Source of the DNA: Kutzneria viridogrisea
Lineage (GTDB): Bacteria > Actinomycetota > Actinomycetes > Mycobacteriales > Pseudonocardiaceae
Reading direction: 5' to 3'
DNA: 64,000 bases
NCBI GenBank assembly: GCA_014138725.1
Contig: JACJID010000007.1
Coordinates: forward strand, 1 to 64,000
A program made the position numbers and the translations under genes. How positions within the stretch are numbered: the first letter of the stretch is position 1; each line of letters begins with the position of its first letter. Positions 20,489-59,376 of this stretch are shown here, piece by piece. The notes beneath the pieces were generated by a model. The model was not told the origin of the DNA and did no database searches. It was given only the letters and a program-made list of their open reading frames with translations.

Positions 20489-20506
20489 GCAGGGGCCAAA
20501 GACCCC
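20489..20506 (-). promoter_or_regulatory. DosR-like box upstream of the group 1 hydrogenase
   Basis: Minus strand GGGGTCTTTGGCCCCTGC, 46-63 bp upstream of the small-subunit ATG. It matches the motif found before hypF (GGGGGCTTTCGCCTCTGC) at 15 of 18 positions. It resembles the M. tuberculosis DosR consensus core GGGACTWWAGTCCC (11 of 14). Confidence 0.6.
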
Positions 20507-21209
20507 AGAGGGAACTGAGTACGTGATCGATACTCAGCATGTGGCCGCCACAGGTTTCTTTGCGCGTATGCCATGTGGCTGGCTAGGTGGCCGATGTGAG
20601 GTCCACCTGTCGGCATGCCTGTACCGTCCCACTTGGTGTCCACAACGCTCTCTTGACGTACATGCGCCACGGACAACTGCCCGTCACGAACTGCGTTCGT
20701 GGATGCCAAAGCTGCGGTCCGGCCCTTACCCAACAGGCACTTGCACCGAACGAGTCAAGAGGATCCCCTTGCCGCGATCCAGCCTCCGCGAAGCGATGCG
20801 TTCGCCGCGACGGCGCCACCGGTCACCGAGATGGTTGCGGTTCGGATACCCCGCCGCGCCGAGTGGCGGGACGGCAACCAGAGTGGCGTCGGTTCAGCAC
20901 CGAGCACATGGGCCTGGTGGCAGGGCGCAAGGCTGCCCGTCGACCCGCGCGTTCACGACTACTCGCTGAACTCTGGGCAGGCGGGCGTCTCTGTCTCGCC
21001 GCGTCGCACGAGCGATCCCTGCCCCACCGTGGTGCCCCAGCCGTTGTGCTGGACCGGACCGAAAACGAGCCGAACGCCCACGCGGGTGGAGGCACCCAGC
21101 CGGGTAGAGCCGCTCGGGCTTACGCCAAAGGCGTGTACCTGGTCGAGCCCACGGCGGTACGCAGTATCGGCCCCTGGAGCCCAGACACGCAGGGTCATAA
21201 GCTGTCCGG
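20507..21209. other. Gene-free stretch between divergent hydrogenase and phoU
   Basis: No coding sequence is convincing in either direction. It must hold the phoU promoter and the upstream part of the hydrogenase promoter. Nothing else is recognised. Confidence 0.4.
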
Positions 21210-21911
21210 ATGCGCGAAATCTTCCACGCCGAGTTGGACCAGTTCGGCCAGCAGTTGGCCCTCATGTGCCACACGGTCAGCGAGGCGATGGAACAGGCGA
21301 CCCGCGCCCTGCTGGCGGCAGACCTCGCCCTTGCTGAGCGGGTCATCGGTGGTGACCTCGCGATTGACAAAGCCCGTACGGCCGCCGAAGATCACGCCCA
21401 ATCACTTCTTGCGCTCCAGTCGCCAGTGGCCACCGACCTGCGTGTCGTGTTCGCCGGGCTGCGGGTCGCGGAAAGCCTGGAGCGAATGGGAGACCTGGCC
21501 CGGCATGTGGCGCAGGTCGCCCGCCTGAGGCATCCGGAGCCAGTGCTACCGGACGATTTTCGGTCGGCGTTCGCCACCATGGGCCGCGTTGCGGTACAGA
21601 TGGCCGCTGGCGCCGAGCAGGCCATCCGCGACAGCGACCCGTCCTTGTCACAGTCGTTGGCGGAGGCCGACGACCAGATCGATGCCTTGCACAGCAGCCT
21701 GTTCACGGCGATCAACAGCAAGGCCTGGAACCACGGTGTCCAGGTTGCGGTAGATGTCGCGCTGTTGGGGCGGTTCTACGAGCGCTACGCCGACCACGCT
21801 GTCTCCGTCGCCCGCCGGATGGACTTCGTACCAACTGGCACACTGTGGAGCGTACGCGAGCAGGCCGCCAGCAAGTCGGGCCTGACGGAGCCCGAGCGCG
21901 GCGATGGGTGA
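21210..21911 (+). CDS. phoU: PhoU-family phosphate regulator
   Basis: A 233-residue all-helical protein made of two PhoU repeats. The first has MREIFHAELDQFGQQLALMC and DLAIDKARTAAEDHAQSLLA then SPVATDLRVVFAGLRVAESL, ERMGDLARHV (the E-R-x-G-D metal-binding signature); the second has RFYERYADHAVSVARRM. PhoU normally restrains the PstSCAB transporter and PhoR-type kinase. No pst or phoR gene is near. The small membrane protein downstream overlaps its stop by 8 bp. Confidence 0.92.
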   Translation: MREIFHAELDQFGQQLALMCHTVSEAMEQATRALLAADLALAERVIGGDLAIDKARTAAEDHAQSLLALQSPVATDLRVVFAGLRVAESLERMGDLARHVAQVARLRHPEPVLPDDFRSAFATMGRVAVQMAAGAEQAIRDSDPSLSQSLAEADDQIDALHSSLFTAINSKAWNHGVQVAVDVALLGRFYERYADHAVSVARRMDFVPTGTLWSVREQAASKSGLTEPERGDG

Positions 21912-22128
21912 CTACCCGGGCCTGCTCGGTGGAATGGTCCTGGTGGAATTCAGCTTCAGCATCACGGTCGTGAGTCTGTTCGCGCTGGGGATCCGTGGCT
22001 TGGCGCAGCGCAGCGAGGCCAAGCGCGTCGGCGCGTCAGGCGTTCTCAGCCTGACAACCGCCATCGTGTGCTTCACCGCCTGCGTGGCTATCGTGGCCTA
22101 CGGGCTGTCCCTCATGCTCAGCCGATGA
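21904..22128 (+). CDS. Small two-helix membrane protein
   Basis: A 74-residue protein overlapping the phoU stop, so probably coupled to it. Two transmembrane segments are visible: GMVLVEFSFSITVVSLFALG and LTTAIVCFTACVAIVAYGLS, separated by a short basic loop (QRSEAKRVG). No family is recognised. Linkage to PhoU suggests a membrane-associated role in phosphate or redox response, which is only inference. Confidence 0.7.
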   Translation: MGDYPGLLGGMVLVEFSFSITVVSLFALGIRGLAQRSEAKRVGASGVLSLTTAIVCFTACVAIVAYGLSLMLSR

Positions 22129-22134
22129 CACTGG

Positions 22135-22506
22135 TCACTCTCCAGCAGCGGACGCTGTGTGGCGGCGCGCTCTGTTCGCCTGCGAGTCGGCCTTGACGAC
22201 GTAGACCTCCCAGGGCTCCTTGCCGGGGCCGTGTACCCAGACCTTGTCCTGCACGGCGTAGCAGCAGGTGGTGTCGTTCTCCACGTCGGTGAACAGCCCG
22301 AGGGCGGACAGCCGCTCGCTGGCCTCGGTGACCTGCTCGCTGGACTCGACCTCCACCCCGAGGTGGTCCATCACCGTCTCCTGGCCTGGCTCGCCCGCCA
22401 GCAGTACCAGCTTCAACGGTGGCTCGGTGACGGCGAAGTTGGCGTAGCCGGGACGGCGTTTGGCTGGTTCGACGCCGAACAGCTTGGTGTAGTCAGCACC
22501 GTGCAC
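22135..22506 (-). CDS. CadI/ArsI-like glyoxalase-fold protein, N-terminally shortened
   Basis: A 123-residue protein strongly resembling actinobacterial cadmium-induced CadI/ArsI (VOC fold): YTKLFGVEPAKRRPGYANFA, VTEPPLKLVLLAGEPGQETV, MDHLGVEVESSEQV, NDTTCCYAVQDKVWVHGPGK and EPWEVYVVKAD. The Cys pair and the metal-binding Glu (PWEVYVV) are present, but the first strand (normally about 20 residues with a His/Gln ligand) is missing: upstream sequence gives only VHGADYTKLFG. It may be a pseudogene or use a non-standard start. It abuts a copper-ATPase relic. Confidence 0.7.
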   Translation of the reverse strand: MHGADYTKLFGVEPAKRRPGYANFAVTEPPLKLVLLAGEPGQETVMDHLGVEVESSEQVTEASERLSALGLFTDVENDTTCCYAVQDKVWVHGPGKEPWEVYVVKADSQANRARRHTASAAGE

Positions 22507-23790: not shown

Positions 23791-23808
23791 GAGGGCTTTC
23801 GCCTCTGC
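23791..23808 (+). promoter_or_regulatory. DosR-like box upstream of hsp20
   Basis: Plus strand GAGGGCTTTCGCCTCTGC, about 63-80 bp upstream of the Hsp20 ATG. The 16 bases GGGCTTTCGCCTCTGC are identical to those upstream of hypF at 56 kb, 32 kb away and on the opposite strand. Confidence 0.7.
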
Positions 23809-23870: not shown

Positions 23871-24305
23871 ATGGCGGTGCCAGTTCACAGGCCCCAGCAC
23901 GGGTTGTTGCCCAACCTGATCGACTGGGCCGAGTCCTTTCCACCGCTGCTCTGGCTCCAGCCCACACCAGGCATCCAGGGCATCCGGATCGAGGACCGCA
24001 TTGAGGACGGCAAGTACGTGGTGCGGGCGGAGTTGCCAGGCATCGACCCGGACGAGGACGCCACGATCACGGTTGACGGTCGACTGCTGACCATCTCGGC
24101 CGAGCGCGCCGAGGAAACCACCGAGTCGGGCCGATCCGAGTTCCGCTACGGCTCCTTCTCGCGGACCATCACGCTGCCCGCCAACGCCAAGGACAGCGAG
24201 ATCACGGCGACCTACAACAGGGGAATCCTGACCGTCACAGCGCCGCTCGACGAGGCGGCCACAGAACAGCGCAAGATCCAGGTCCAGAACGAGAAGGAGA
24301 GCTGA
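23871..24305 (+). CDS. Small heat-shock protein, Hsp20/alpha-crystallin family
   Basis: A 144-residue holdase chaperone. ATG 23871 follows GGAGG. The alpha-crystallin domain (about 40-130) shows YVVRAELPGIDPDEDATITV, LLTISAERAEE, EFRYGSFSRTITLPANAKDS and the ending NRGILTVTAPLDE (GxLxVxxP). In M. tuberculosis the homologous hspX is the hallmark DosR target, and here the gene has the shared upstream box, which supports induction by low oxygen or redox stress (inference). Confidence 0.93.
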   Translation: MAVPVHRPQHGLLPNLIDWAESFPPLLWLQPTPGIQGIRIEDRIEDGKYVVRAELPGIDPDEDATITVDGRLLTISAERAEETTESGRSEFRYGSFSRTITLPANAKDSEITATYNRGILTVTAPLDEAATEQRKIQVQNEKES

Positions 24306-36234: not shown

Positions 36235-36492
36235 CTAACTGTGTCCCTGCTGGCTTCGACCAACCAGGAAGCTGATACACCGGTCCAGCGTGGACATTTG
36301 CTCGTAGTCCTCTTCCTCGATGCGCAGCCCAGTCCTGCGACTCAGGTTGGCCACCAGGTTCTGGAAGTCCAGCGAGTCGAGTTCGAGCGCGCTTCTCAGG
36401 TCAGTGTCCGGCGCGAGGCCGTCCATCTCGGCATCTGGCGCGACACGCAGCAGTTCCGCCACGACGATCTCACGTGATTGTTCTGGGGTCAC
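36235..36492 (-). CDS. Acyl carrier protein
   Basis: An 85-residue carrier protein. GTG 36492 overlaps the E2 stop (GTGA). The phosphopantetheine Ser is in LELDSLDFQNLVANL, with the following helix RRTGLRIEEEDYEQMSTLDR. It is the last gene of a run acs-E1alpha-E1beta-E2-ACP. An ACP linked to a 2-oxoacid dehydrogenase is unusual; it could accept an acyl group from the complex or a ligase (inference). Confidence 0.9.
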   Translation of the reverse strand: MTPEQSREIVVAELLRVAPDAEMDGLAPDTDLRSALELDSLDFQNLVANLSRRTGLRIEEEDYEQMSTLDRCISFLVGRSQQGHS

Positions 36493-37802
36493 AACACCTC
36501 CGGTCGTTGCAGCAACTCGTTGAGCGTGCTCAGGAACCGGGCGCCGGTATGGCCGTCGGTGGCCCGGTGGTCTGCGGACAGGGTCGCGGTGACCATGCTC
36601 CGCACACCGAGCAGACCGTCGACCGCACATGGGCGCTCGCTGAGCTTGCCGAAGCCGACAAGTGCGACCTGAGGCGGGTAGATCACCCCGTGCACGGACT
36701 CCACGCCCAGGTCGCCGAGATTGGTCACGGTGATGGTCGCGTCGGTGAGCTCGGTGCCCCGCAGACGCCCGCTGCGGGCTCGCCGCACCAGGTCCCCCAG
36801 CCTTCGCATCAGTTCTGCCAGGTCGAGCTCGTCGGCGCTGCGGATGGCCGGCGCGATCAGGCCGCCGCCGCGCAGTGAGATCGCAACCCCGAGGTGGACC
36901 GCTGTGCCGGGCGCGAACTGGTCGTCGAGCCAGTGACCGTTGAACGCGGGTACCCTCCTGGCTGTCACCGCGGTTGCCTTCAGCAGTGCCGCGGCGGCAA
37001 GGACGCGGTCCTCGACAGGCAGTTCCAGATTGCGCCCGCGCAACAGCGCGTTGACCCTGGTCATGTCAATCTCAGTGCTGAGGTAGTAGTGGGGGATCTC
37101 CCGCTTCGATCGGGCCATCAGGCGTGCGGTGGCCAGTCGCATGGCCGTCAACCGGTCCGGTTCCTGGGGCGACTGGGTGGTCGGTTCACCCGATGTCGAT
37201 GGCTGGTGGGTCGCGGCGGCTCGGACCTGTGCCGCCCGCACCGGCGTGCCCGTGGAGTCGCTGGTCAGGGCCGCCAAGTCGACTCCGAGTTGCTTGGCGA
37301 GTTGGCGTGCGTAGGGCGTGACCTGGGTTCGGCCACCCTCTACGGCCTTGGGCGTGGCCACCTGTGCGGCGGGTGCGCCGCGGGGCTCGGGCGTGACCAC
37401 CGGTGCGGCGCGGCGGACGTCCGCCCTGGTGATCGCACCGTTGCGGCCGGTGCCCGATACTGACGCGAGGTCGACCCCGAGTTGCTTGGCGTACTCGCGT
37501 ACCGGTGGGCTTGCCAGCGCTGGCGGACACGGAGGCCGTGGAGCAGCGGGTTGCGGAAGTTGAGCCGGCTCGGTCGTGATCGTGGCCAACGGTGTGCCCA
37601 CCGGCACCCGCTCGCCCTGCGGCACCATGATCCGCTCAACCACGCCGCTGTCGAAACACTCCACCTCGACGGTGGCCTTGTCGGTGTCGATCACGGCGAC
37701 GACATCTCCCCTGCGAACGGTGTCGCCCGGTTTCACCAGCCACTGGGTCAGCGTTCCCTCGTCCATGTCAGCGCCGAGCGAGGGCATCAGGAAGTCAGCC
37801 AC
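36489..37802 (-). CDS. pdhC: 2-oxoacid dehydrogenase E2 (dihydrolipoamide acyltransferase) with two binding domains
   Basis: A 437-residue protein from GTG 37802, overlapping the E1beta stop by 8 bp. A lipoyl domain (1-75) carries the lipoyl Lys at 42 (DTDKATVE). Two peripheral subunit-binding domains follow, [20 protein letters not shown] (about 100-135) and [20 protein letters not shown] (about 165-200); one is usual. The catalytic domain (about 220-437) ends in [20 protein letters not shown] with the His and Asp. No E3 gene is here, so lipoamide dehydrogenase must come from elsewhere. Confidence 0.9.
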
Positions 37803-45705: not shown

Positions 45706-46509
45706 CTACTCGGCTGGCGTGATCAGGCCATAGTGCCCGTCGTAGCGGCGATAGAGCACCCCTGCGCGCGCGTGTTCGGCGTCGAGGAAGAACACGAACG
45801 GCTGGCCCGACAGGTCGAGCCTGTCGATGGCCTCGGTCGTGCTCAGCACCGGCGCGTCCTGGTCGCTTATGGTCAGTGACACGGTGAAGGGAGTCAGGTG
45901 TTCGCGGGGCGCCGGGTTGACCTGGGCCAGCCGGTACCCGGTGGGGTCCGTCCGGTGGAGCACGCTGTCCTGCTCGCTTCCGGCCTCGGTGAACAGGTGG
46001 AAGTCGTAGTCCATCATGTCCATCTCGAACGCGGCCTCGTCGATACCGATCCTGGACAGCGTGTAGGACTTGTGGCGGATGATCTCGCGTTCACCCGCTG
46101 GCCGGGGGAAGTAGGTAGGGCGGGATGTGCGCGGAGTGTCGTGCCGCCACTCGTGGGCCACAGGGGTGGACATCCTGCCGCGCCTGGCCTCCCAGTGCTG
46201 GGCGATCCGTTCCAGCCGGTGGGCGAGTCTTGTCTCGAGCAGGTCCACCGCCTCCCGCGCGGTCGGCGCTTCGACCTGGGCGCGCACGATTCTTCCGCTG
46301 ATATCGAGGGTCGCCTGGGCTACGACCGGCCGCGCCACGGCGGGATCGCGATGCGTGGTCAGTCTCACCTTGGCGTACAGAACGCGATTTCGGACGCGCC
46401 GGGTCACGCGGGCAACCTTGTCCCGCGCGTACTGCACGACGTCCTCGGGTATCGCCTTGCCGACTGCTACCCGCACGTCCTGAGGCGAGATCGGTTCCAC
46501 CCGGTGCAT
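45706..46509 (-). CDS. Ribosome-associated hibernation factor (RafH/HPF family)
   Basis: A 267-residue two-domain protein. The N-terminal HPF/S30AE-like domain (about 1-110: YARDKVARVTRRVRNRVLYA, VAQATLDISGRIVRAQVEAP) should bind the small ribosomal subunit. The C-terminal half has a repeated HPF-C-type block (EIIRHKSYTLSRIGIDEAAF, MDYDFHLFTEAGSEQDSVLH and FVFFLDAEHARAGVLYRRYD). This is the layout of Rv0079/MSMEG_3935, the DosR-controlled hypoxia ribosome factor. A weak GGGTC-type site lies about 52-68 bp upstream. Confidence 0.88.
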   Translation of the reverse strand: MHRVEPISPQDVRVAVGKAIPEDVVQYARDKVARVTRRVRNRVLYAKVRLTTHRDPAVARPVVAQATLDISGRIVRAQVEAPTAREAVDLLETRLAHRLERIAQHWEARRGRMSTPVAHEWRHDTPRTSRPTYFPRPAGEREIIRHKSYTLSRIGIDEAAFEMDMMDYDFHLFTEAGSEQDSVLHRTDPTGYRLAQVNPAPREHLTPFTVSLTISDQDAPVLSTTEAIDRLDLSGQPFVFFLDAEHARAGVLYRRYDGHYGLITPAE

Positions 46510-47751: not shown

Positions 47752-48180
47752 CTACACCTGCGGCCGCAGCAGTGCGCGTATGCCGTCCGGCAACCGGTCG
47801 AGTGCCTTGCTGACCTGACCTGGGGATAGATGGCGCTGCGCGACCGCTGTCACCGCCGGTGCCGCGCGGTGCACGTCCTGCAGGGAGATGTTGGCATCCC
47901 GCGCGAAACGCGACTCATAGGCGCTGGCGTCGTACCGCTGTGGGACCGAACTGGGATCCCACCCCTCGTAATAGATTCCGCGCAGCAGTTCGGGCAGTTG
48001 CGCGGCGAAGTGCGCGCTGGCTTCTACCGTGAGCCGGTCACGCAGGGTGTGCAGCCACGCGCGAAGGACCCGGTAGGCGAACTTCCGGTCGTCGGTGTCG
48101 AACTCGCTGGCCACATCGCGCACCCACTCGTTCGCGGCCTGCACCGCGTGATCGAAGACGGACGCTTTCGTCGTTGGCAT
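47752..48180 (-). CDS. DUF2267 protein
   Basis: A 142-residue helical protein matching DUF2267: FDHAVQAANEWVRDVASEFD, FAYRVLRAWLHTLRDRLTVE, ASAHFAAQLPELLRGIYYEG, and VTAVAQRHLSPGQVSKALDR. Start ATG 48180. Function unknown, but such genes are frequent in actinobacterial hypoxia islands. A DosR-like box (GGTGGACTTTCGCCTCTG) lies 61-80 bp upstream. Confidence 0.88.
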   Translation of the reverse strand: MPTTKASVFDHAVQAANEWVRDVASEFDTDDRKFAYRVLRAWLHTLRDRLTVEASAHFAAQLPELLRGIYYEGWDPSSVPQRYDASAYESRFARDANISLQDVHRAAPAVTAVAQRHLSPGQVSKALDRLPDGIRALLRPQV

Positions 48181-49515: not shown

Positions 49516-49971
49516 TCAGCAGGGACCAAACGCCCTGCCACCGGACAGTTCGGCCATCGCCTGGCTCACCAGTGCGGGCAGGGCAGCGGCGACAGCGGGC
49601 GACAAGCCCGTCCCGAGACTGATGTCGGCGGCTTCGACGGCCAGGACCACCAGCCGGGCCGGCATCCGGCCGAGCGCACGGCCGAGCGCGACGGCCTCGG
49701 GAATGCCCAGGCCGTGCGAACTGGGTGCGCCACCGGCCAGGGGCAACTCGTCGACGCTGGTGCGATGGACGCGGCCGGGAGTCGACGGTTCGCAGACGAC
49801 GGCGTCGACGACGATCGCCAGATCGGCGTTCTCCCACGCGAGCAGCATGCCTGCGGGTTCGCCGTCGGACTGCACCGCGTTGCCGCCCCTGCGGGCGACC
49901 TGGTCGGCGACCAACGGCCCGACCCCGTCATCGCGACGGTAGGGATTGCCCACCCCGATCAGGACGTTCAC
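49516..49971 (-). CDS. Hydrogenase maturation protease (group 3b type)
   Basis: A 151-residue endopeptidase of the HybD/HycI/HoxW family: VNVLIGVGNPYRRDDGVGPL contains the GxGNxxRxDDGxG nickel-recognition motif, followed by the conserved Asp in IVVDAVVCEPSTPG. GTG 49971 overlaps the HydA stop (GTGA). It should cut the last residues of HydA after H421. It differs clearly from the group 1 protease at 17.2 kb, so each hydrogenase has its own. Confidence 0.9.
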   Translation of the reverse strand: MNVLIGVGNPYRRDDGVGPLVADQVARRGGNAVQSDGEPAGMLLAWENADLAIVVDAVVCEPSTPGRVHRTSVDELPLAGGAPSSHGLGIPEAVALGRALGRMPARLVVLAVEAADISLGTGLSPAVAAALPALVSQAMAELSGGRAFGPC

Positions 49972-51260
49972 CGCTCGGTCCGAGTCAGGTCGAGGAAGTG
50001 CGCCGAGCACGAGATGCACGGGTCGTAGTTGCGGATCGCCCGTTCGCACAACGGGGTCAGCTGCTCATCTGGCAAAGCCAGGTTCGCCGCTACCAACGCA
50101 CGGAGGTCGGCTTCCACCGCGGCCTGGTTCTGCGAGGTGGGCGGCACGATCGTGGCCGTGGTGACCAGCCCGTCGGTCCCGATGCCGTATCGGTGGTACA
50201 GCACGCCTCTCGGCGCCTCGGTGACCCCGTGGCCGATCCCCGCGCGGGGTGGCACCGGGTGGTGGGCCGGTTGGAACGGCTCGTACTCGGAGAGCAACCG
50301 CAGTGCCTCGTCCACGGCGTAGACCAGCTCCACCGCGCGCACCACGATGCTGCGGAAAGGATTTCTGCACGAGGACCCCAAGCCCGCCGCCGTGGCGGCC
50401 TGCCGGGCGATCGGCGAAAGTTGCTCGAAATTGAGGGTGTACCTGGCCAGTGGGCCGGTCAGGTAGCGGTGTCCGTCGAGCTCGGCGTGCAGCGCGGTCG
50501 AGTGGGGTACCTGGTGTTCCACGACGTGGTCGGGGAATTCGGCGACCGGGAAGTCCAGGCCGCTGCTCGAGCGCAGCCGGCCTCGTGTGATCGCGTATTG
50601 GCTCTCCGCGTGTACCGCCAGCAGGTCGTGATCCAGTTCCAGATCGGGGAACTCGAAGCTGGCGACCCAGTCGACCGTGGCCAGAGCGGTGTCCAGGGCG
50701 GACCGCAGCTGCTCGGCGACCGGCGCCAGCGTGGCGCGAGTCGGGGCCTGGTAGAAGCCGCCCACCCGGACGTTGACCGGATGGATGGCCCGTCCGCCGA
50801 TGGCCGCCAGCAAGGCGTTGCCCGCCTTCTTCAGCGCCAGGCCACGTTCCAGCGTGTCCCGGTGCTCGGCGGCCATCGCGATCGCGTCTGGATAGCCGAG
50901 GAAGTCCGGCGCGTGCAGCAGGTAGACGTGCAGGGCGTGGCTGGAGATCCACTCGCCGCAGTAGAGCAACCTGCGCAGCGCCTCGACCTCGGTGGACACC
51001 GCCACGCCGCAGGCGTCCTCGATGGCCAGGCAGGCGCTGAGCTGGTAGGCGACCGGGCAGATGCCGCAGATGCGGGCGGTGATGTCCGGGGGCTCGGTGT
51101 ACGCGCGGCCCCTCAACAGCGCCTCGAAGAACCGGGGTGGTTCGTAGATCCGCAGTTCGGCTCGTTCCACCGCGCCCTCGTGCAGCACTACGTTGAGCGC
51201 GCCTTCTCCTTCGACCCTGGCCAACGCGCTGACCCGCAGTTGACGTGCGCGGTGACTCAT
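49968..51260 (-). CDS. hydA: Group 3b [NiFe]-hydrogenase large subunit
   Basis: A 430-residue catalytic subunit of a cytosolic NAD(P)-linked bidirectional hydrogenase (sulfhydrogenase). L1 motif ARICGICPVAYQLSACLAIE gives C65 and C68; L2 motif NYDPCISCSAHFLD gives C415 and C418, with 9 residues after the cut His. These are group 3b hallmarks. Unusually it is separated from hydBGD by hypFCDE. No Tat signal. It would exchange electrons between H2 and NAD(P)H together with HydD, HydG and HydB. Confidence 0.93.
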   Translation of the reverse strand: MSHRARQLRVSALARVEGEGALNVVLHEGAVERAELRIYEPPRFFEALLRGRAYTEPPDITARICGICPVAYQLSACLAIEDACGVAVSTEVEALRRLLYCGEWISSHALHVYLLHAPDFLGYPDAIAMAAEHRDTLERGLALKKAGNALLAAIGGRAIHPVNVRVGGFYQAPTRATLAPVAEQLRSALDTALATVDWVASFEFPDLELDHDLLAVHAESQYAITRGRLRSSSGLDFPVAEFPDHVVEHQVPHSTALHAELDGHRYLTGPLARYTLNFEQLSPIARQAATAAGLGSSCRNPFRSIVVRAVELVYAVDEALRLLSEYEPFQPAHHPVPPRAGIGHGVTEAPRGVLYHRYGIGTDGLVTTATIVPPTSQNQAAVEADLRALVAANLALPDEQLTPLCERAIRNYDPCISCSAHFLDLTRTER

Positions 51261-51281
51261 CGGTCCGCTCCCTGTCGTGAG

Positions 51282-52334
51282 TCAGCAGATCCGGGGCAAC
51301 TGTTCGCCGACGAGCATGTCCACCACCCGGTGGGAACCGATCAGCGTCCGGGCCAGCACCCGGCCGACCGGGCCCTGGGTGAGCACTCCCACGCGGCGGG
51401 CCTGTTCACCTTCGGGCAGGGCACGCATCGCGGTCAGCACTCGATCCGCTGCCTCGGGGGCGACGAAGGCGACCAGGCAGCCCTCGCAGGCCACGTGCAG
51501 CGGGTCGAGGCCCAGCAGCTCGCAGGCGGCGGCGACCTGAGCCGACACGGGCAGGTGCTGCTCCACGAGCTCGACGCCAACACCCGAGGCGGCCGCCAGT
51601 TCGTTCAGCGCGCTGGCCAACCCGCCCCTGGTGGGGTCGCGCAGGCTGTGCACCGCGGCCCCGCCGACTTCGATCATGGCGGCGACCAGGCGGTGCAGCG
51701 GCCGGCTGTCGGAGATGATCCCGCTGTCGATGCCCAGCTCCGCGCGTGCGTCGAGGACCGCCATGCCGTGCTGCCCGAGCGGGCCGGACACCAGCACCAC
51801 GTCGCCGGGCTGACCGGATCCCGCCGACGGGTAGGCTTCGCGCAGCCGCACCCCCAGCCCGGTGGTGGTGACGTACAAGCCGTCCGCGGCCCCCCTGCCG
51901 ACCACCTTGGTGTCGCCGGTGACCACCGGGACCCCGACCTCGGCGGCGGCCCGGGCGACCGAGCGCGTCACGCGGCGCAACTCCTCGATCGGCAGTCCCT
52001 CCTCAACCAGGTAGGCCAGGCTCAGCGCGAGCGGGCGGGCGCCGCGCATCGCGAGGTCGTTCACGGTGCCGTGCACGGCCAACGACCCGATGTCGCCGCC
52101 GGGAAAGAACCTCGGCGTGACCACGTAGCCGTCGGTGCTGAACACCAGGTCCAGGTCGGCGATCCCGACCAGGGCCGCGTCCTCCGGCGGCGCGGTCACA
52201 CCCAGTTCGGTCGCGATCACCTGGTCGATCAACTCGGCCATGAGCCGGCCGCCGGAGCCGTGGCCAAGCAGCACACGCTCGTGCTCCGTGGTGGGAGCCG
52301 GACAGGTCGCCGCGAGCGGATCACCACTCATCAT
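51282..52334 (-). CDS. hypE: Carbamoyl dehydratase HypE
   Basis: A 350-residue protein that dehydrates the thiocarbamoyl group to the Fe-bound CN ligand of [NiFe] hydrogenase. The C-terminal PRIC supplies the carbamoylated Cys. ATP-site features: [37 protein letters not shown] and [12 protein letters not shown]. It overlaps HypD (ATGA) and precedes hydA by 21 bp. Confidence 0.96.
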
Positions 52335-53437
52335 TCCTCCACAGTGGACATTCGGGTGCGGCCGGCGTTGTGGAACGCGGCGCAGGTGCCCTCGCTGGAC
52401 ACCATCGGAGCGCCCAGTGGTGTGCGTGGCGTGCAGGCCGTGCCGTAGACGGGGCAGTCAGTGGGCAGCCTCGTACCGCGCAGGATCTCGCCCGCGATGC
52501 ACTGCGGGTTCTCCGCGACGCTGAGCTCGGCGGTGGCGAAGCGCAGGTCCGCGTCGAAGGCGGTGAACCGCTCGGTGAGCGCGAGCCCGCTGTGGTCAAT
52601 GGTGCCGATACCCCGCCATGTTCTCCTGGTTACGCGGAAGACCCGTGCCATCACCTCCCGCGCGGCCTGATTTCCGTTGCGGCGCACGGCACGCACGTAC
52701 TGGTTCGCCACCTCGGCGCGGCCCTGTTCGAGCTGGCGCACAGCCATCAGAATGCCCTCGACCAGATCCAGCGGCTCGAAACCGGTGACCACGATCGGCA
52801 CGCCGTAGCGCACGGCGATGGGCTCGTACTCGGTCCACCCCATCACCGCGCACACGTGCCCCGCAGCCAGGAACGCCTGCACCTGGTTGTCCGGGGAGTC
52901 CATGATCGCTGTGATCGCCGGCGGCACCAGCACGTGGCTGACCAGCACGCTGAAGTTGGTCAACCCGGCCTCGGCCGCGCGCAGCACCGCCATCGCGTTG
53001 GCCGGAGCGGTCGTCTCGAAGCCGACCGCGAAGAACACCACCTGCCGCCCTGGGTTCTGCTCGGCCAGGCGCACCGCGTCCAGTGGTGTGTACACCACGC
53101 GCACGTCGGCGCCTCGGGCGCGCAGCCCGAGCAAGTCGCCGTGTGAGCCTGGAACCCGCAGCATGTCACCGTAGCTGGTGAAGATCACCTCCGGCCGCGC
53201 GGCGATGGCAAGCGCCTTGTCCACGGCCGCCAACGGGGTCACGCACACGGGACACCCCGGTCCGTGGATCATCCGGACACCAGCCGGGAGCACCTCGTCG
53301 ATGCCCTGGCGCACGATGGTGTGCGTCTGGCCACCACAGACCTCCATGATGGTCCAGGGCCTGGTCGCCGTCCGGTGCAGCTCGTCGAGCAGTCGCCGGG
53401 CCAGCTCGGGGTCGCGGTACTCGTCCAGGTACCTCAT
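52331..53437 (-). CDS. hypD: Hydrogenase Fe-CN/CO assembly factor HypD
   Basis: A 368-residue [4Fe-4S] scaffold for Fe(CN)2CO assembly. Conserved Cys motifs: [38 protein letters not shown], and the C-terminal cluster site in [28 protein letters not shown]. All Cys are present. It partners HypC and HypE in the same coupled operon. Confidence 0.96.
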
Positions 53438-53682
53438 GCCGTCCCCAGTTCGGCGGCCAGGGCGTCCGGGATGGCCCGGATCACCGCGAGGGTGCGGGCC
53501 GCCTCATCGGGATCGACGGTGCTGATGGCGAAGCCCACGTGCACGACCACGTAGTCGCCGGGCCGTGCTTCGGGCGTGTAGGCCAGGCACACCGAGCGCC
53601 GCACGCCGTCGAAGTCCACGGTTCCCATCGCGCGGCCGTCCGGCTGGATCTCGACGATGCGACCGGGGATTCCGAGACACAT
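53434..53682 (-). CDS. hypC: Hydrogenase assembly chaperone HypC
   Basis: An 82-residue chaperone starting [16 protein letters not shown], with the essential Cys2 that carries the Fe ligand, and [13 protein letters not shown] at the end of the OB fold. ATGA overlap with hypD. It delivers the Fe(CN)2CO unit from HypD to the large-subunit precursor. Confidence 0.96.
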
Positions 53683-53688
53683 CCGTGC

Positions 53689-55971
53689 TCACCTCCTGTC
53701 CAGCCGGGCCGCCGCCACCGCGGCCTGGCCGTAGCTGATGCCCCCGTCGTTGACGGGGACCTGTGCGCTGACCAGCCCGTGCAGTCCCACCTCGCGCAGG
53801 CCGTCGAGCACCTGGGTGAGCAGCCGCCGGTTCTGGAAGACCCCGCCGCCGAGGCACACCGTGCGCACGCCGCTGTCGCTGGCGACCTGCTCGGCCAGTG
53901 CGACGGTCACCTCGGTCATGGTGGTGTGGAACCGAGCGGCGACAGCCCCGGGTGGCGCGTCGATGGCTGCCTGGAGCAAGTGGCGCAGGGTCGGTACCGG
54001 GTCGAAGACCCACAGGTCCTCCTGCCTGCGCAGCGACCAGTGCAGCACCTTGCCGTCGGGATGCCCGGCGGCGGCCGCCTCCAGCAGCACCGCCGCCTCG
54101 CCTTCATAGCTGGCGCTGTCGCATACTCCGAGCAACGCGGACACGGCGTCGAAGAGCCGGCCAGCACTGGAGGTGACCGGGCAGTTGAGCCGCTTGCCAA
54201 CCGCCGACCGGATGCCGCGCACCTCGATCGGGTCGAGTCTGTCCAGCAGCACCGCCGCCTCCGCGGCGTGCAGCGGCTCGGCGCGGGTTTCCGCCCCGTA
54301 GAGGTAGCCGAGCGCCATCCGAGCCGGTCGGCGGATGGCCGCTGCCCCGCCCGGCATCGGCGCCAGACCGAACCGCCCCACCCGACGGTGCTCGCGGAAC
54401 GTGGCCAGCAGGATCTCGCCGCCCCAGAACGTGCCGTCCTCGCCCAGACCGAGCCCGTCGTAGGCGATACCGATGAACGGGCCGTCCACCCCGTGCTCCG
54501 CGGCCGTCGCGGCGACGTGGGCGTGGTGGTGCTGCACCGGAATTCGCCGGCCGGCCGGCCACCGCTCGGCGAACCTGGTCGACAGGTACTGAGGATGCAG
54601 GTCGCACGCGCAGTACTCGGGACTGACCTGGTGCAGGCGCAGCGTCCGCGCCACCCCCCGCTCGAAGGCGGCCAGCGTCTCCGCGTTCTCCAGGTCCCCC
54701 AGGTACGGTCCGAGGTAGGCGCGGTCCTCGACCGCGAGCGTGGTGGTGTGCTTGAGCTGTGCCCCGACCGCGAGCACCGGCGCGGTGGTCGCGCAGGGCA
54801 GCCGGAGGAAGTCCGGAGCGTATCCCCGGGCACGGCGCAGGAGTGTGGTACGACCCGACACAACCCTTGCCACCGAGTCGTCGCAGCGGGACCAGATCGG
54901 GCGATCGTGCCGCAGGACGCCGTCCACCAACGGACCGAGCTCGGTGGTGGCCGCGAGGTCGTCGATGACGATCGGTGAGCCGGCCACATTGCCGCTGGTG
55001 ACGACCAGCGGCCGGGCAAGGCCCGCCAACAGCAGGTGGTGCAACGGGCTGGTGGGCAGGAACAGCCCCAACTCGGCCACGTCGGGGGCAACCGAAGGAG
55101 CGAGCCGCGCAGACGTTCCCGCGCACAGCACGATGGGCGCCTCCGCCGAGGCCAGGACGGTGGCCTCGGGCTCGGTGAGCGGGGTCAGTCGTCGGGCTTC
55201 GGCCACCGATCCCGTCATCACGGCGAACGGCTTGCGCTGACGGGCCTTCAGCCGACGCAGTCGCCGTACCGCCTGATCGTCAGTGGCGTCACAGACGAGT
55301 TGGTACCCACCGATGCCCTTGACCGCCACGATCCCGCCGTCGGCCACGGCCACGATCGCGGCCCCCAGCGCGTCCTCGCCGCGTGCGGTGTCCCAGGCCA
55401 GCTGTGGTCCGCAGTCCGGGCAGGCGATCGGCTCGGCGTGGAACCGCCGGTTCCCCGGGTCGTGGTACTCGGTGGTGCATCGCGCGCACATCCAGAAACC
55501 GCGCATCGAGGTCCTGCTCCGGTCGTAGGGCAGGCTTGTCATGATTGTGGCGCGCGGCCCGCAGTTCGTGCAGTTGACGAACGGATATCGGTAGCGACGG
55601 TCGGCCAGGTCCCACAGCTCGCGCAGGCAGTCCTGGCAGGTGGCCAGGTCGGGAGTGACCGTACCGGCGCTGTGGTCCACGCTGCTGCCCGCGATGGCGA
55701 ACCCCGCACCGAGGTGCGTCGAGGGATCCGGAGTGACGTCCACGCGGTCGATCCGCGCGTGCGGCGGCGCGGTCCGCTCCAGCCGGGCGACGAACTCGTC
55801 CAGGTTCTGGCGGCAGCCGGACGCGGAGATCACCACGTGCCCACCGGCGTTGCGCACGAATCCGTCGATGCCGAGCTCGGTGGCCAACCGGTAGACGCAC
55901 GGTCGGAAGCCGACCGCCTGCACGCGGCCGTACACCTCGATGCGTGCGCACACGCGCTCAGCTGCCTCCAT
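53689..55971 (-). CDS. hypF: Carbamoyltransferase HypF
   Basis: A 760-residue enzyme making carbamoyl-adenylate for cyanide-ligand synthesis. Domains: acylphosphatase (1-95, VYGRVQAVGFRPCVYRLATE), two zinc fingers (CQDCLRELWD to NCTNCGPRA; CARCTTEYHD to ACPDCGPQL), YrdC-like (about 205-390), and a Kae1-like C-terminal domain with metal ligands in PVQHHHAHVAATAAEHG. ATG 55971 is chosen because it fits the acylphosphatase start; GTG 56007 is an alternative with a better GAGGTG site. A DosR-like box lies upstream. HypA and HypB are not in the window. Confidence 0.96.
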   Translation of the reverse strand: MEAAERVCARIEVYGRVQAVGFRPCVYRLATELGIDGFVRNAGGHVVISASGCRQNLDEFVARLERTAPPHARIDRVDVTPDPSTHLGAGFAIAGSSVDHSAGTVTPDLATCQDCLRELWDLADRRYRYPFVNCTNCGPRATIMTSLPYDRSRTSMRGFWMCARCTTEYHDPGNRRFHAEPIACPDCGPQLAWDTARGEDALGAAIVAVADGGIVAVKGIGGYQLVCDATDDQAVRRLRRLKARQRKPFAVMTGSVAEARRLTPLTEPEATVLASAEAPIVLCAGTSARLAPSVAPDVAELGLFLPTSPLHHLLLAGLARPLVVTSGNVAGSPIVIDDLAATTELGPLVDGVLRHDRPIWSRCDDSVARVVSGRTTLLRRARGYAPDFLRLPCATTAPVLAVGAQLKHTTTLAVEDRAYLGPYLGDLENAETLAAFERGVARTLRLHQVSPEYCACDLHPQYLSTRFAERWPAGRRIPVQHHHAHVAATAAEHGVDGPFIGIAYDGLGLGEDGTFWGGEILLATFREHRRVGRFGLAPMPGGAAAIRRPARMALGYLYGAETRAEPLHAAEAAVLLDRLDPIEVRGIRSAVGKRLNCPVTSSAGRLFDAVSALLGVCDSASYEGEAAVLLEAAAAGHPDGKVLHWSLRRQEDLWVFDPVPTLRHLLQAAIDAPPGAVAARFHTTMTEVTVALAEQVASDSGVRTVCLGGGVFQNRRLLTQVLDGLREVGLHGLVSAQVPVNDGGISYGQAAVAAARLDRR

Positions 55972-56036: not shown

Positions 56037-56054
56037 GCAGAGGCGAAAGCCCCC
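56037..56054 (-). promoter_or_regulatory. DosR-like box upstream of hypF
   Basis: Minus strand GGGGGCTTTCGCCTCTGC, 66-83 bp before ATG 55971 and in the gap between hypF and the small subunit gene. Strongest match of the shared motif, with the identical 16-mer at hsp20. It implies that hypFCDE-hydA can be transcribed separately from hydBGD. Confidence 0.7.
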
Positions 56055-56068
56055 GACGCGCGTCGAGG

Positions 56069-56818
56069 TCACCGCCGGAATTCCGGTGCCGTCGCGTTGA
56101 ACGTCCGGAACGCGCGGTCGATCGCCCGCTCGTCGAGCCCGCAAGCCCGCAACTGGTCCACCAGCGCGGTGATGTTGGGCTGGTTCATCGGGCCGAAACA
56201 GCCGAAACAGCCACGATTGTGCGCGGGGCACAACGCGCCGCAGCCGGTGTGGGTGACCGGCCCGAGGCACGGGATGCCGTCGGCGACCATCACACAGGTC
56301 AGCCCGCGCCGTTTGCACTCGGTGCAGACGCTGGTGTCGGGCAGGTTGGGCTTGCGCCCCGCCAGGAACGCGGTGAGGACCTCCAGCAGTTGGCGGCGGT
56401 CGATGGGGCAGCCGCGCAGTTCGTAGTCCACCGGCACGTGGGCGGAGATAGGCGTGGAGGTGGCCAGCGTCTCGACGTGCTGGGGGCTGGCGTAGACCAG
56501 TGACTGGTACTCGGCGATGTCGCTGAACTCGCGCAGTGCCTGGATGCCGCCCGCGGTCGCACATGCGCCGATGGTGACCAGGATCTTCGACTGCTCGCGT
56601 ACTCGCTGGATCCTCGTGAGTTCTTCCGGCGTGGTGACCGAGCCCTCGACCAGCGACACGTCGTACGGTCCCTGGATGACCGTGCTGCTGGCCTCGGTGA
56701 ACCGCGCGATGCGCACCGCACCGGCCAGTGCGAGCAACTCGTCCTCGCAGTCCAGCAGAGTGAGCTGGCAGCCGTCGCAGGAGGTGAACTTCCAGACGGC
56801 GAGACTGGGTGTGCCCAT
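56069..56818 (-). CDS. hydD: Group 3b [NiFe]-hydrogenase small subunit
   Basis: A 249-residue small subunit with no signal peptide. Proximal cluster Cys are normal: [26 protein letters not shown] and [12 protein letters not shown]. Further cluster motifs are [14 protein letters not shown] and [20 protein letters not shown] followed by RGCFGCFGP. It shares the TGATG overlap with hydG. A decayed copy of its C-terminus is at 12.9-13.15 kb. It passes electrons from HydA to HydG and HydB. Confidence 0.94.
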
Positions 56819-57648
56819 CACAGCTCCTTGATCGTGAGCAGTGCACCGACGGCGGCGTAGTTCACCACCGGGCCGTCCCAGCACACCAGGAGCGGGCCGA
56901 GCTGGCAGTGCCCGCACTGGCCCAAGCCGCACTGCATGTTGCGCTCCAGGGAGAGCCGGATCTGGCCTGCCAGGATGCCTCTGCGCAGCAGCGCCGAGGC
57001 GCAGAACCGCATCATCGGCTCCGGTCCGCACAGGAACGCCGTGGTCGCGGAGGGATCCAGCGCCAGCCAGGACAGGGGTTCGGTGACGAAGCCGACCTGT
57101 CCGCGCCAGCCCTGGGTGGGACGGTCCACCGTCAGCACCACGGCCATGTCCTCGCGTCGCGCCCATTCGTCGAGCTCCCGGCGATACAACAGGTCATCGG
57201 GTGTGCGCGCGCCCACCACCAGGATGAGCCGGCGGTAGCGCCACCGCTGGGCCAGCGCGGCGAGGACCACCGGGCGCAGTGGGGCCAGTCCGAGCCCGCC
57301 AGCCACTACGAGCACGTCGGTGTCGCAGGCGCTGGGCAGGTCCCAGCCGGTGCCGAAGGGTCCGCGCACCCCGATCACCGTGCCGACGGGCGCGGCGCAC
57401 AGGGCACGGCTGACCGCGCCGACCTCGCGCACGGTGTGTGTCAACGAGCCGTCCACAACGGACAGGTTGCCGCTGATCGAGATCGGGATCTCGCCGACGC
57501 CCCTGACGTAGAGCATGGTGAACTGGCCGGGCCGGAGCCGGGGGATGGTCAGGCGCACCGGCTTCAACCGCAGCGTGACCGTGTCATCGGTCTCCGGGGC
57601 CCTGTCGGTGACCACGTACGGCAGCGGCAGCAGAGGATCACCGCTCAT
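56818..57648 (-). CDS. hydG: Group 3b hydrogenase FAD/NAD(P)-binding subunit
   Basis: A 276-residue ferredoxin-reductase-like diaphorase subunit. FAD region [23 protein letters not shown](P)-binding [20 protein letters not shown], and a C-terminal [2Fe-2S] site [20 protein letters not shown]. It exchanges hydride with NAD(P)H. It overlaps the cNMP-binding gene by 11 bp and hydD by one base. Confidence 0.94.
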
Positions 57649-58102
57649 GGGGGCGTCCGTACAGGTCGAGCAGCCGTGCCCTCGTCGCCTGCAGGCGTTC
57701 CAGCAGCGTGGCCAGCAGTGTCATCGCCACCGGGTAGCCGAAGGACGGGTCGTGTTCTGCCCAGGCCCGCAGCTGCTCGGTGTCCAGCTCCACCGCGAGC
57801 GTCGGGGTGACGGCCACCGCGCCGAAATGCCAGCGGTACGGCGGGACGAGCCAGGACCAGCCGACCACCTGGCCGGGTCCGAGGGTCTGCACCACACCGG
57901 GAGCCTGGCCGGGGAGCACCGTGTCCACGGCGACACAGCCCCGGCGGACCACCCAGCAGCCCACCGCGGGTGCGCCCTCCTCGAACAGCCGCTGGCCCTC
58001 GGCGAAACTCACCTCGCGGGCGGCGCGAGCGAGTACTTCCAGGTGCGATTCCGCCAGCCCCGCGAACGGGGTGCCCTCGCCGAACAGGTCACGCGCGCGC
58101 AT
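57638..58102 (-). CDS. Stand-alone cyclic-nucleotide-binding domain protein
   Basis: A 154-residue protein from ATG 58102, overlapping the hydB stop by 14 bp. The Crp/cNMP-type beta roll is clear (VSFAEGQRLFEEGAPAVGCW, VVRRGCVAVDTVLPG, LGPGQVVGWSWLVPPYRW), followed by one helix and no helix-turn-helix. The usual phosphate-binding Arg of cAMP sites is replaced by WSWLVPP, so the ligand is uncertain. Its place between hydB and hydG suggests a regulatory or structural role for the hydrogenase. Confidence 0.85.
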   Translation of the reverse strand: MRARDLFGEGTPFAGLAESHLEVLARAAREVSFAEGQRLFEEGAPAVGCWVVRRGCVAVDTVLPGQAPGVVQTLGPGQVVGWSWLVPPYRWHFGAVAVTPTLAVELDTEQLRAWAEHDPSFGYPVAMTLLATLLERLQATRARLLDLYGRPHER

Positions 58103-59162
58103 CGGATCCGCTTCTCTCGGCGGCCAACGCCGCCGCTTCCTCGGTGATGTCGATGCCGACCGGGCACCAGCCGATACACCGCCCACAGCCGACGCATCCC
58201 GAACTGCCGAACTGGTCGTACCAGCTGCTCAGCTTGTGGGTCAGCCACTGCCGGTACCGGCTGGCCGCGGAGGTGCGCACGCTGCCGCCGTGCAGGTGGG
58301 AGAAGTCGATCTCGAAGCAGGAAACCCAGTGCTGCCAACGCTCGGCGTGCTGACCGGTCAGGTCGGTGACGTCCTCGGTACTGGTGCAGAAGCAGGTCGG
58401 ACACACCATGGTGCAGTTGCCGCAGGTCAAGCAGCGCTGGGCGACGTCGTTCCACCGCTGGGCCGCCGAGGAATCGCGCAGCAGCGTGCGCAGGTCCACC
58501 TCCGGCATCACCCGTCCCATCCGCCCCGTGGCCGAGGCCACCTGCGACCTCGCGCTGGCCACCTCGGGGCCGCGGGCTGACCGGCGGGGCACCGGTAGCA
58601 GCGCACGAGCGCCCCTCGGCGTGCCCACCTCCACCAGAAATCGGTGCGGGTCGAGGAGTTCGGTGAGCACCAGGTCGTAGCCCGGTCCCGCCGCAGGCCC
58701 GGTGCCCATCGAGGAGCAGAAGCACAGCCCACCGGGTTCCGTGCAGTTCGCCGCGATGACCAGGGGGCGCGGGCCATCGCCGAGCACCTGGCCGAGGATG
58801 CCGAGCGCGGCCAGGTCGCAGCCACGCACTCCCAGAAACGCCAGCGGTGTGCGGTCCTCCTCCGCAGGCACGTATTCGCCGTCCCGGTCGGTCTGCCAGA
58901 GCTTGCGACGCGCTGGATGCACGAACTGCTTCCAGGACTGCGGACCGGCGCTGTGCGCGAACACCGCCATGTCCTCCCTGCGGCGCAGTCGGTAGCTGCC
59001 CGGCGCGACCTCGACGCCCCAGCCGTCGGGCAGTTGCGCGCCGCCGGACAGCTCATCGAGCACGATCGCGCTGTCCCGTACGGTCGGGCCGATCACGCGG
59101 TGGCCCGTCGCGAGCAATGAATCGACGAGGTGGTTCAGGCCGTCCCTGTCGAGGATTTCCAC
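58089..59162 (-). CDS. hydB: Group 3b hydrogenase iron-sulfur subunit
   Basis: A 357-residue HydB/AsrA-like electron carrier. The N-terminal 230 residues hold the core domain (AFLGVRGCDLAALGILGQVL, LVIAANCTEPGGLCFCSSMG); two [4Fe-4S] motifs lie in the C-terminal part: RCLTCGNCTMVCPTCF and GCVGCGRCIGWCPVGID. It links the cluster chain to other partners (NAD(P) or sulfur). It is the first large gene of the operon. The ATG 59162 lies 7 bp after a small membrane-protein gene. Confidence 0.92.
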   Translation of the reverse strand: MEILDRDGLNHLVDSLLATGHRVIGPTVRDSAIVLDELSGGAQLPDGWGVEVAPGSYRLRRREDMAVFAHSAGPQSWKQFVHPARRKLWQTDRDGEYVPAEEDRTPLAFLGVRGCDLAALGILGQVLGDGPRPLVIAANCTEPGGLCFCSSMGTGPAAGPGYDLVLTELLDPHRFLVEVGTPRGARALLPVPRRSARGPEVASARSQVASATGRMGRVMPEVDLRTLLRDSSAAQRWNDVAQRCLTCGNCTMVCPTCFCTSTEDVTDLTGQHAERWQHWVSCFEIDFSHLHGGSVRTSAASRYRQWLTHKLSSWYDQFGSSGCVGCGRCIGWCPVGIDITEEAAALAAERSGSDARA

Positions 59163-59169
59163 GCCAGCC

Positions 59170-59304
59170 TCAGCTCCTCAGCAGATCCCGCTGCCCGATG
59201 TACACGGCCACCGCGAGCGAACCTGCCCAGAACAGCAGCATTCCCAACGCCGCTGTCACCGACGCCAGCCAACCGCCATTGGGTCCACCGCACCATGGAG
59301 TCAT
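59170..59304 (-). CDS. Small single-helix membrane protein at the hydB operon head
   Basis: A 44-residue protein missed by most length cut-offs. ATG 59304 follows GGGAAGGTG at good spacing. One transmembrane segment (SVTAALGMLLFWAGSLAVAV) after a short Cys/Gly/Trp-rich N-terminus (MTPWCGGPNGGW). It lies just before hydB, and the DosR-like box lies 55-72 bp upstream of its start, so it is probably the first gene of the hydrogenase operon. It may anchor the enzyme or act independently. Confidence 0.6.
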   Translation of the reverse strand: MTPWCGGPNGGWLASVTAALGMLLFWAGSLAVAVYIGQRDLLRS

Positions 59305-59358
59305 CGCGCACCTTCCCAGCTTGACGCGTTCAGCCTGACCAACGGGCACACGCGGTGA

Positions 59359-59376
59359 ACAGATCTGAAAGCCCTT
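59359..59376 (-). promoter_or_regulatory. DosR-like half-box before the hydB operon
   Basis: Minus strand AAGGGCTTTCAGATCTGT, 55-72 bp before ATG 59304. The left half GGGCTTTC and the TCTG end match the shared motif; the centre-right is degenerate. Confidence 0.45.

What the first reader, a model, noticed from the sequence alone, without database searches (positions are those of the whole stretch)
20489..59376. A repeated DosR-like promoter motif ties together hydrogenases, Hsp20, acsA-pdh, aldolase and DUF2267
The sequence GGGRCTTTCGCCTCTGC recurs on both strands, always 45-90 bp upstream of a gene start: 20489-20506 (group 1 hydrogenase), 23791-23808 (hsp20), 41592-41610 (acsA), 43196-43213 (aldolase), 48241-48260 (DUF2267), 56037-56054 (hypF), 59359-59376 (hydB operon, half). 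A 16-mer is identical at hsp20 and hypF, 32 kb apart. The arms (GGGNC, GNCNC) are pseudo-palindromic around TTTC, like the DosR/DevR core GGGACTWWAGTCCC. This implies one regulon for H2 oxidation, pyruvate/acetate metabolism and dormancy.
Basis: partly seen in the sequence, partly recalled or inferred. Interest (0 to 1): 0.82.

Follow-up and report, generated by a model that had tools for sequence, protein, structure and literature searches.

The report
DosR-type dormancy regulon with hydrogenases
A short DNA motif repeated in front of hydrogenase, stress-protein and acetate/pyruvate genes is very probably the binding site of a DosR-type low-oxygen regulator, a known kind of dormancy switch that here seems to control an unusually broad energy-metabolism set.

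Summary
Six of the seven sites hold. Five (hydS, hsp20, aldolase, DUF2267, hypF) share the motif; acsA has a canonical DosR palindrome instead; hydB is at background. GGNCTTTNGNCYCTG occurs 8 times in the 10.25-Mb genome (3 for the reversed pattern): 4 in the window, 4 at three other loci, each directly upstream of a universal-stress-protein gene. In 437 kb of own-genome DNA, 15 of 15 strong matrix hits are intergenic and 14 of 15 lie within 200 bp upstream of a called start. The genome encodes a close DosR/DevR homologue, a DosS-like kinase and three DosR paralogues, near usp, nitroreductase and P-type ATPase genes that also carry boxes. Boxes recur upstream of acsA (2 of 3 relatives), DUF2267 (4 of 6) and some hypF orthologues. 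Against: the pattern is not enriched in 59 relatives overall (90 versus 84 reversed), and a matrix of published Streptomyces OsdR sites recovers only acsA. A DosR-type regulon with a variant box is the best reading. The kind is known, including DosR control of hydrogenases in M. smegmatis. Less expected are acsA-PDH, a HyaB-like hydrogenase and a V/A-type ATPase operon. Binding and hypoxic induction are untested.

The parts
20489..20506 (-). DosR-type box GGGGTCTTTGGCCCCTGC, 45 bp upstream of the hydrogenase small subunit
   Evidence: fits GGGNC-N4-GNCCC fully
19391..20443 (-). [NiFe]-hydrogenase small subunit (hydS)
   Evidence: PF14720, PF01058
17685..19394 (-). [NiFe]-hydrogenase large subunit, closest to HyaB/HybC-type models (below their curated cut-offs)
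17173..17688 (-). hydrogenase maturation protease, HyaD/HybD-like
23791..23808 (+). DosR-type box GAGGGCTTTCGCCTCTGC, 62 bp upstream of hsp20
23871..24305 (+). Hsp20/alpha-crystallin
   Evidence: PF00011
41594..41611 (-). canonical DosR palindrome (AGGGACGAAGGTCACT), 54 bp upstream of acsA
   Evidence: box also upstream of acsA in 2 of 3 relatives
36489..41539 (-). acsA-like AMP-binding enzyme, PDH-type E1alpha, E1beta, E2, likely one operon
43196..43213 (-). DosR-type box GGGGCCTTTCGCCTCTTC, 24 bp upstream of the aldolase
   Evidence: no box at p<=0.01 in 3 relatives
42206..43171 (-). DeoC/LacD-family aldolase
   Evidence: PF01791
46554..46571 (-). weak box CAGGACCTTAGGCACTGC, 44 bp upstream of HPF; uncertain
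   Evidence: score 12.4, within the range of shuffled windows; shuffle p=0.02
45706..46509 (-). ribosome hibernation factor (HPF-like)
   Evidence: PF16321, PF02482
48242..48259 (-). DosR-type box GTGGACTTTCGCCTCTGT, 61 bp upstream of DUF2267
   Evidence: box at nearly the same place in 4 of 6 close relatives
47752..48180 (-). DUF2267 protein
   Evidence: PF10025
48885..49373 (+). universal stress protein gene beside the DUF2267 gene; no strong box of its own
56037..56054 (-). DosR-type box GGGGGCTTTCGCCTCTGC in the hydD-hypF gap, 83 bp upstream of hypF
   Evidence: relatives
49516..55953 (-). hypF, hypC, hypD, AIRS-family (hypE-like), NiFe large subunit (hydA), HycI-type protease
56069..59162 (-). 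hydD-, hydG- and hydB-like subunits and a cNMP-binding protein: group 3b-type (sulfhydrogenase-like) hydrogenase; NCBIfam scores below curated cut-offs
61618..63999 (-). window part of a V/A-type ATPase operon (subunits D, B, part of A); its box lies outside the window at contig C7 69249

Best explanation
The repeated motif is the binding site of a DosR/DevR-type NarL-family response regulator encoded elsewhere in the same genome (contig C10, 222 aa). Under low oxygen (or NO/CO) a DosS-type GAF-domain kinase would phosphorylate DosR, which would bind inverted half-sites GGGNC and GNCYC separated by four bases, 24-83 bp before the start codons, and activate transcription. The set includes two hydrogenase units (hydS operon; hypFCDE-hydA-hycI), Hsp20, acsA-PDH, a DeoC-family aldolase and DUF2267, beside usp, nitroreductase and P-type ATPase genes elsewhere. 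Shown: the sites, their positions, the regulator genes, and recurrence of several sites in relatives. Inferred: binding, phosphorylation, hypoxic activation, and which of four DosR paralogues acts.
For: 8 exact pattern sites genome-wide versus 3 for the reversed pattern: 4 in the window, 4 at three usp loci. 15 of 15 matrix hits >=16 are intergenic and 14 of 15 lie 10-200 bp upstream of a called start (background 20% and 7.6%) over 437 kb; 9 of the 15 are the training seeds. With a matrix from 12 non-window sites the top five window hits are exactly five reader sites. DosR homologue: E=2e-83 to DevR 3c3w, helix FLAEKTVKNYVS identical. DosS-like kinase: E=1e-60 to 2vzw, GAF, HisKA_3 and HATPase_c. 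Boxes lie 36 bp before dosR and 96 bp before dosS, and before the paralogues on C4 and C7 (44 and 40 bp). Relatives: acsA 2 of 3, DUF2267 4 of 6 close and 9 of 23 distant; hypF in G031 and G292, G022, N. anaemiae. In G018 a box precedes acsA-E1-E1-E2-usp-CBS genes in a cluster with usp, P-type ATPase and nitroreductase genes.
Against: A matrix of published S. coelicolor OsdR sites ranks acsA 3rd but the aldolase, hydS, hypF, DUF2267, hsp20 and hydB sites 35th, 164th, 346th, 651st, 1153rd and 1492nd. Four of the five motif boxes have GNCTC where DosR has GNCCC. In 59 relatives the exact pattern is not enriched (90 versus 84 reversed; 9 versus 14 in the six of the same genus). With one mismatch it is not enriched in the own genome (51 versus 72). 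In one search, 6 of 30 column-permuted matrices gave at least the 8 hits >=12 of the real one. No box: aldolase 0 of 3, HPF 0 of 4; hydS strong in only 1 of 9. The C5 dosR paralogue has no box above threshold. No expression or binding data.
Confidence: 0.85

Rival explanations
1. The TTTCGCCTCTGC-type box is read by a different regulator (another NarL/LuxR response regulator or an unrelated factor) that co-regulates the same dormancy genes, while DosR reads only canonical palindromes such as acsA.
For: The asymmetric boxes score poorly with the OsdR matrix; 25 places in the genome match DosR at E<=1e-30, 21 beyond the four close paralogues, with 150 of 211 candidates scored.
Against: Same half-site spacing as DosR (by eye); intermediates such as AGGGACTTTCGCCCCTGC, GGGGACTTTCGGCTCTGC and CGGGACTTTCGGCCCTGC occur before hypF, nitroreductase-like and GAPDH-like genes in relatives, and boxes of both kinds lie near dosR/dosS in G053 and G038; the helix core FLAEKTVKNYV is the same in all four close paralogues.
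Confidence: 0.1
2. The motif is an RNA element (5' UTR hairpin) or a dispersed repeat.
For: It can be drawn as a 5-bp stem with a TTTC loop; 76.7% of cells pair.
Against: Column pair 5/12 does not pair in 9 of 12 sequences and shuffles give the same pairing (75.7%); no Rfam match in the window at gathering thresholds; similarity beyond about 18 bases is not seen by eye.
Confidence: 0.03
3. Chance similarity picked out by eye.
For: The motif was found by reading; hydB is weak; relaxed patterns are not enriched, nor is the exact pattern in relatives.
Against: 0 of 100 shuffles; out-of-window exact hits at usp genes; boxes at the same place before orthologues.
Confidence: 0.02

Closest known systems
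DosR/DevR regulon of mycobacteria, especially M. smegmatis
   Same: DosR and DosS-like proteins; usp, Hsp20, nitroreductase genes; box architecture. M. smegmatis: dos regulon includes hydrogenases Hhy and Hyh (PMC8125079, passages read); hypoxia-induced clusters near two devR copies with a NiFe hydrogenase, P-type ATPase and PEP synthase (PMC2799521, passages read); consensus GGGACTTNNGNCCCT (PMC6448022, passages read). A PPDK-type gene lies just behind a box here too (C10:256660)
   Different: Four of the five motif boxes have GNCTC as second half; four DosR paralogues; acsA-PDH, DeoC-family aldolase, DUF2267 and apparently a V/A-type ATPase are added. That these are absent from the mycobacterial regulons was not checked gene by gene
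OsdR regulon of Streptomyces coelicolor (PMC5069765; passages and the section with Table 1 read)
   Same: DevR orthologue; palindromic boxes at usp, PPDK and nitroreductase genes around osdR
   Different: Consensus AGGGCCGATCGGCCCT lacks the TTT centre; a matrix of its listed sites recovers only the acsA site here; the word hydrogenase does not occur in its main text

Membership tests
DosR/DevR regulon | DosR-type response regulator with conserved recognition helix encoded in the genome | tested here: met
   C10:337364-338032, E=2e-83 to DevR 3c3w; receiver and GerE domains; helix core FLAEKTVKNYV in all four close paralogues
DosR/DevR regulon | DosS/DosT-type GAF-domain kinase | tested here: met
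   C10:338589-340256: E=1e-60 to 2vzw, kinase-domain matches 3zxq and 3zxo, GAF, HisKA_3, HATPase_c; heme binding itself not tested
DosR/DevR regulon | Box GGGNC-N4-GNCCC | tested here: inconclusive
   counted by eye: hydS fits fully; acsA, hypF and aldolase have one deviation; hsp20 and DUF2267 two; the usual deviation is GNCTC
DosR/DevR regulon | Boxes sit upstream of genes, including the regulator's own | tested here: met
   14 of 15 hits >=16 lie 10-200 bp upstream; box 36 bp before dosR
DosR/DevR regulon | Typical targets: usp, Hsp20, nitroreductase | tested here: met
DosR/DevR regulon | DosR-dependent induction by hypoxia, NO or CO | not testable with these tools
   needs RNA-seq or mutants
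DosR/DevR regulon | Direct binding by phosphorylated DosR | not testable with these tools
   needs EMSA or ChIP
OsdR (Streptomyces) box | High score with a matrix of published OsdR sites | tested here: not met
   1 of 7 reader sites (acsA) ranks in the top 10; the others rank 35 to 1492

The most novel reading that the evidence does not exclude
One low-oxygen switch in this bacterium drives a whole alternative energy module: a HyaB-like hydrogenase rare among its relatives, a group 3b-type hydrogenase, an acsA-PDH carbon operon and a V/A-type ATPase, through a lineage variant of the DosR box (GGNCTTTNGNCTCTGC) that may let four DosR paralogues with the same helix core share or divide the targets.
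Probability: 0.35. Interest if true: 0.6.

Novelty: new member of a known kind. Interest (0 to 1): 0.45.

Why it matters
It extends likely DosR control of hydrogen metabolism beyond mycobacteria with sequence evidence, adds acetate/pyruvate entry (acsA-PDH) and DUF2267 as candidate dormancy targets whose boxes recur in relatives, and suggests that a V/A-type ATPase may belong to a DosR regulon. It gives concrete promoters to test in a non-mycobacterial lineage.

Tried and rejected
RNA hairpin reading: not supported (no Rfam match). hydB site: scored with three matrices, stays at background. A joined C10-C7 island: the contig ends show no exact overlap of 20-399 bases and the end genes did not look like one gene, so adjacency is not shown. 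Hydrogenase small-subunit relatives: no other of 200 family genomes at E<=1e-80 and 9 others of 394 class genomes at E<=1e-90; of these 9, one has a strong box and two more reach shuffle p=0.01 at weak scores. The permuted-column control was not discriminating at cutoff 12 (6 of 30 permutations reached the real count). A first upstream scan ignored strand and was redone. -10 elements were looked at by eye only and are not claimed. The 24-hypF control is imperfect: whether those genes head a transcription unit was not established, and three of them start 29-41 bp after a same-strand gene. Of 29 motif-hit loci from relatives, 4 fell below the matrix cutoff; of the other 25, 22 are intergenic and 3 lie inside genes, and 6 of 25 have a neighbour similar to usp, DosR, nitroreductase or hypF of this genome. 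Paper searches: DosR binding with consensus and hydrogenase in M. smegmatis (0), hydrogenase-DosR-Pseudonocardia (0), DUF2267 with DosR (0), a mixed query (15 of 21 listed) and one with V-type ATPase and acetyl-CoA synthetase (10 of 11 listed, listing only; no title on a DosR-controlled ATPase). They cover only the open library.
Full report
Observation. The motif is real. GGGRCTTTCGCCTCTGC with up to 3 mismatches gives 5 matches in the window against 0.62 expected, and 0 of 100 shuffles reach 5. These are the hydS, hsp20, aldolase, DUF2267 and hypF sites. acsA is a different, canonical DosR palindrome (AGGGACGAAGGTCACT, 41596). The hydB half-site is at background. The 16-mer shared by hsp20 and hypF is present. 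Gaps from box to called start are 45 (hydS), 62 (hsp20), 54 (acsA), 24 (aldolase), 61 (DUF2267), 83 (hypF) and 196 bp (hydB); starts come from my own simple gene caller and may be off.

Genome-wide test. GGNCTTTNGNCYCTG has 8 exact matches in 10.25 Mb against 3 for the reversed pattern. Four are in the window. The other four lie at three loci, C4:1218712/1218768, C10:271006 and C10:328017, each directly upstream of a universal stress protein gene; a Pfam search lists 22 Usp-domain matches in the whole genome, some weak. With one mismatch the matches do not exceed the reversed control (51 versus 72), so only near-exact sites are informative. In 59 relatives the exact pattern is not enriched overall (90 versus 84; 9 versus 14 in the six of the same genus), although single genomes such as G053 (9 versus 0), G038 (12 versus 3) and G018 (7 versus 1) are rich in it.

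Position. In 437 kb of own-genome DNA scanned with a matrix of nine seeds, 15 of 15 hits >=16 are intergenic and 14 of 15 lie 10-200 bp upstream of a called start (background 20% and 7.6%); outside the window the counts are 10 of 10 and 9 of 10. Nine of the 15 (four of the 10) are the training seeds, but their position was not used to choose them. The stretches were chosen around pattern hits and are not a random sample of the genome. The one exception, C7:69249, is 92 bp upstream of an ORF the caller had missed, at the head of a V/A-type ATPase operon. At cutoff 12 the matrix does not discriminate well: 6 of 30 column-permuted matrices reach the real count in C7.

Matrix from outside the window. 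A matrix from 12 non-window sites puts five reader sites as the top five window hits (21.9 to 17.1). Sixth and seventh are 49519, at the 3' end of the hycI-type gene, and 12325, with no clear gene near; acsA is 8th and hydB 10th. Forty block-shuffled windows reach at most 17.4, so four of the five exceed every shuffle and the fifth does not.

Regulator. C10:337364-338032 encodes a 222-aa protein matching M. tuberculosis DevR (3c3w) over residues 7-217 with E=2e-83; FLAEKTVKNYVS is identical in both. That residues of this helix contact DNA is recalled. Beside it lies a 555-aa kinase whose GAF domain matches the DosT/DevS sensor domains (2vzw, E=1e-60) and whose C-terminus matches DosT and DevS ATPase domains. 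A box of modest score (12.0) but perfect GGGNC-N4-GNCCC form lies 36 bp before dosR, and one (16.8) lies 96 bp before dosS and 48 bp before a nitroreductase gene. Three further DosR paralogues (81, 74 and 61% identical) keep FLAEKTVKNYV; two of them have T for S at the next residue. Those on C4 and C7 have boxes 44 and 40 bp upstream; the one on C5 has none above threshold. The same C10 region holds usp, a second Hsp20, P-type ATPase, nitroreductase, PPDK-type and GAPDH genes.

Boxes in other genomes. p is the share of shuffles of about 230 bp upstream sequence that reach the score, taking the better of two matrices without correction. acsA: 2 of 3 relatives (G013, G018) have a strong box, G313 none. 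DUF2267: 4 of 6 relatives with >=64% identity have a box at -74 to -79 (p<=0.003), three with the same GCCTCT half; of 23 more distant DUF2267 genes, 9 reach p<=0.01. hypF: seven relatives have >=52% identity. G031 (p=0.003) and G292 (p=0.010) have a box; G013 is weak (p=0.033); N. anaemiae has one with a single deviation 125 bp before the match start, and G022 a very good one 75 bp before the called start, neither shuffle-tested, and G022 was found through its motif; G039 and G041 have none, and there hypF directly follows another gene. 24 less similar hypF genes give 0 of 24, but I did not establish which of these head a transcription unit. hydS: 1 of 9 strong. Aldolase: 0 of 3 at p<=0.01, two of them inside likely operons. 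Hsp20: 1 of 2 tested; HPF: 0 of 4, though in G018 and G939 HPF follows DUF2267. In G018, acsA-E1-E1-E2, usp and CBS genes lie on one strand behind a box AGGGACCTTGGCCCCTGC 53 bp upstream, in a cluster with further usp, P-type ATPase and nitroreductase genes.

Against the reading. A matrix of published S. coelicolor OsdR sites ranks only acsA high among the seven (3rd); the others rank from 35 to 1492 of 63,985. The M. smegmatis consensus GGGACTTNNGNCCCT (PMC6448022) looks closer by eye because of the TT(T) centre, but four of the five motif boxes have GNCTC for GNCCC. I read this as a lineage variant of the DosR box because intermediates occur at hypF, usp, nitroreductase-like and dosS-neighbouring genes in other genomes. 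A second regulator is not excluded.

What is known. PMC8125079 states that the M. smegmatis dos regulon includes hydrogenases Hhy and Hyh. PMC2799521 reports hypoxic induction of clusters near two devR copies that include a NiFe hydrogenase, a P-type ATPase and PEP synthase. OsdR is a functional DevR orthologue in Streptomyces (PMC5069765). So the system is a new member of a known kind. acsA-PDH, DUF2267 and a V/A ATPase did not turn up as DosR targets in the few searches made, which is weak evidence of novelty. The HyaB-like hydrogenase's small subunit has no other match at E<=1e-80 in 200 family genomes, and an integrase-core ORF and a DDE transposase lie to its left, which fits horizontal acquisition but does not prove it.

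Noticed in passing
contig C7 61618-69156 (window part 61618-63999); L033: V/A-type ATPase operon (A, B, D, I and a weak C/AC39 match below cut-off) with a motif-like box AAGGGCTTTGTCCTCTGC 92 bp upstream of its first ORF.
   Followed up: partly
G000 C10:337364, C4:403470, C7:475438, C5:142441: Four DosR-type response regulators with the same recognition-helix core in one genome.
   Followed up: partly
window 50257-50334: ARAGORN calls a tRNA-Arg(gcg) inside the hydA coding sequence; probably a false positive.
   Followed up: no
window 11689-12009 and 13953-14732: Integrase-core (rve) ORF and a DDE transposase left of the hydrogenase genes.
   Followed up: partly
window 57638-58102: A cyclic-nucleotide-binding-domain protein encoded between the hydB- and hydG-like genes.
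   Followed up: no
window 12327-12368: Two canonical DosR-like boxes (12327 and 12353) 26 bp apart, with no clear gene close by.
   Followed up: partly
window 26800-26815: OsdR-type box (score 13.1) about 100 bp upstream of a multicopper oxidase gene.
   Followed up: no
C10:338501-338562 (L044): Three OsdR-type boxes spaced 23 bp apart, upstream of a 114-aa ORF with no Pfam match, next to dosR/dosS.
   Followed up: partly
C10:263179-264219 and 266574-267614: Two 346-aa genes with the same length and first 25 residues, probably a duplication.
   Followed up: no
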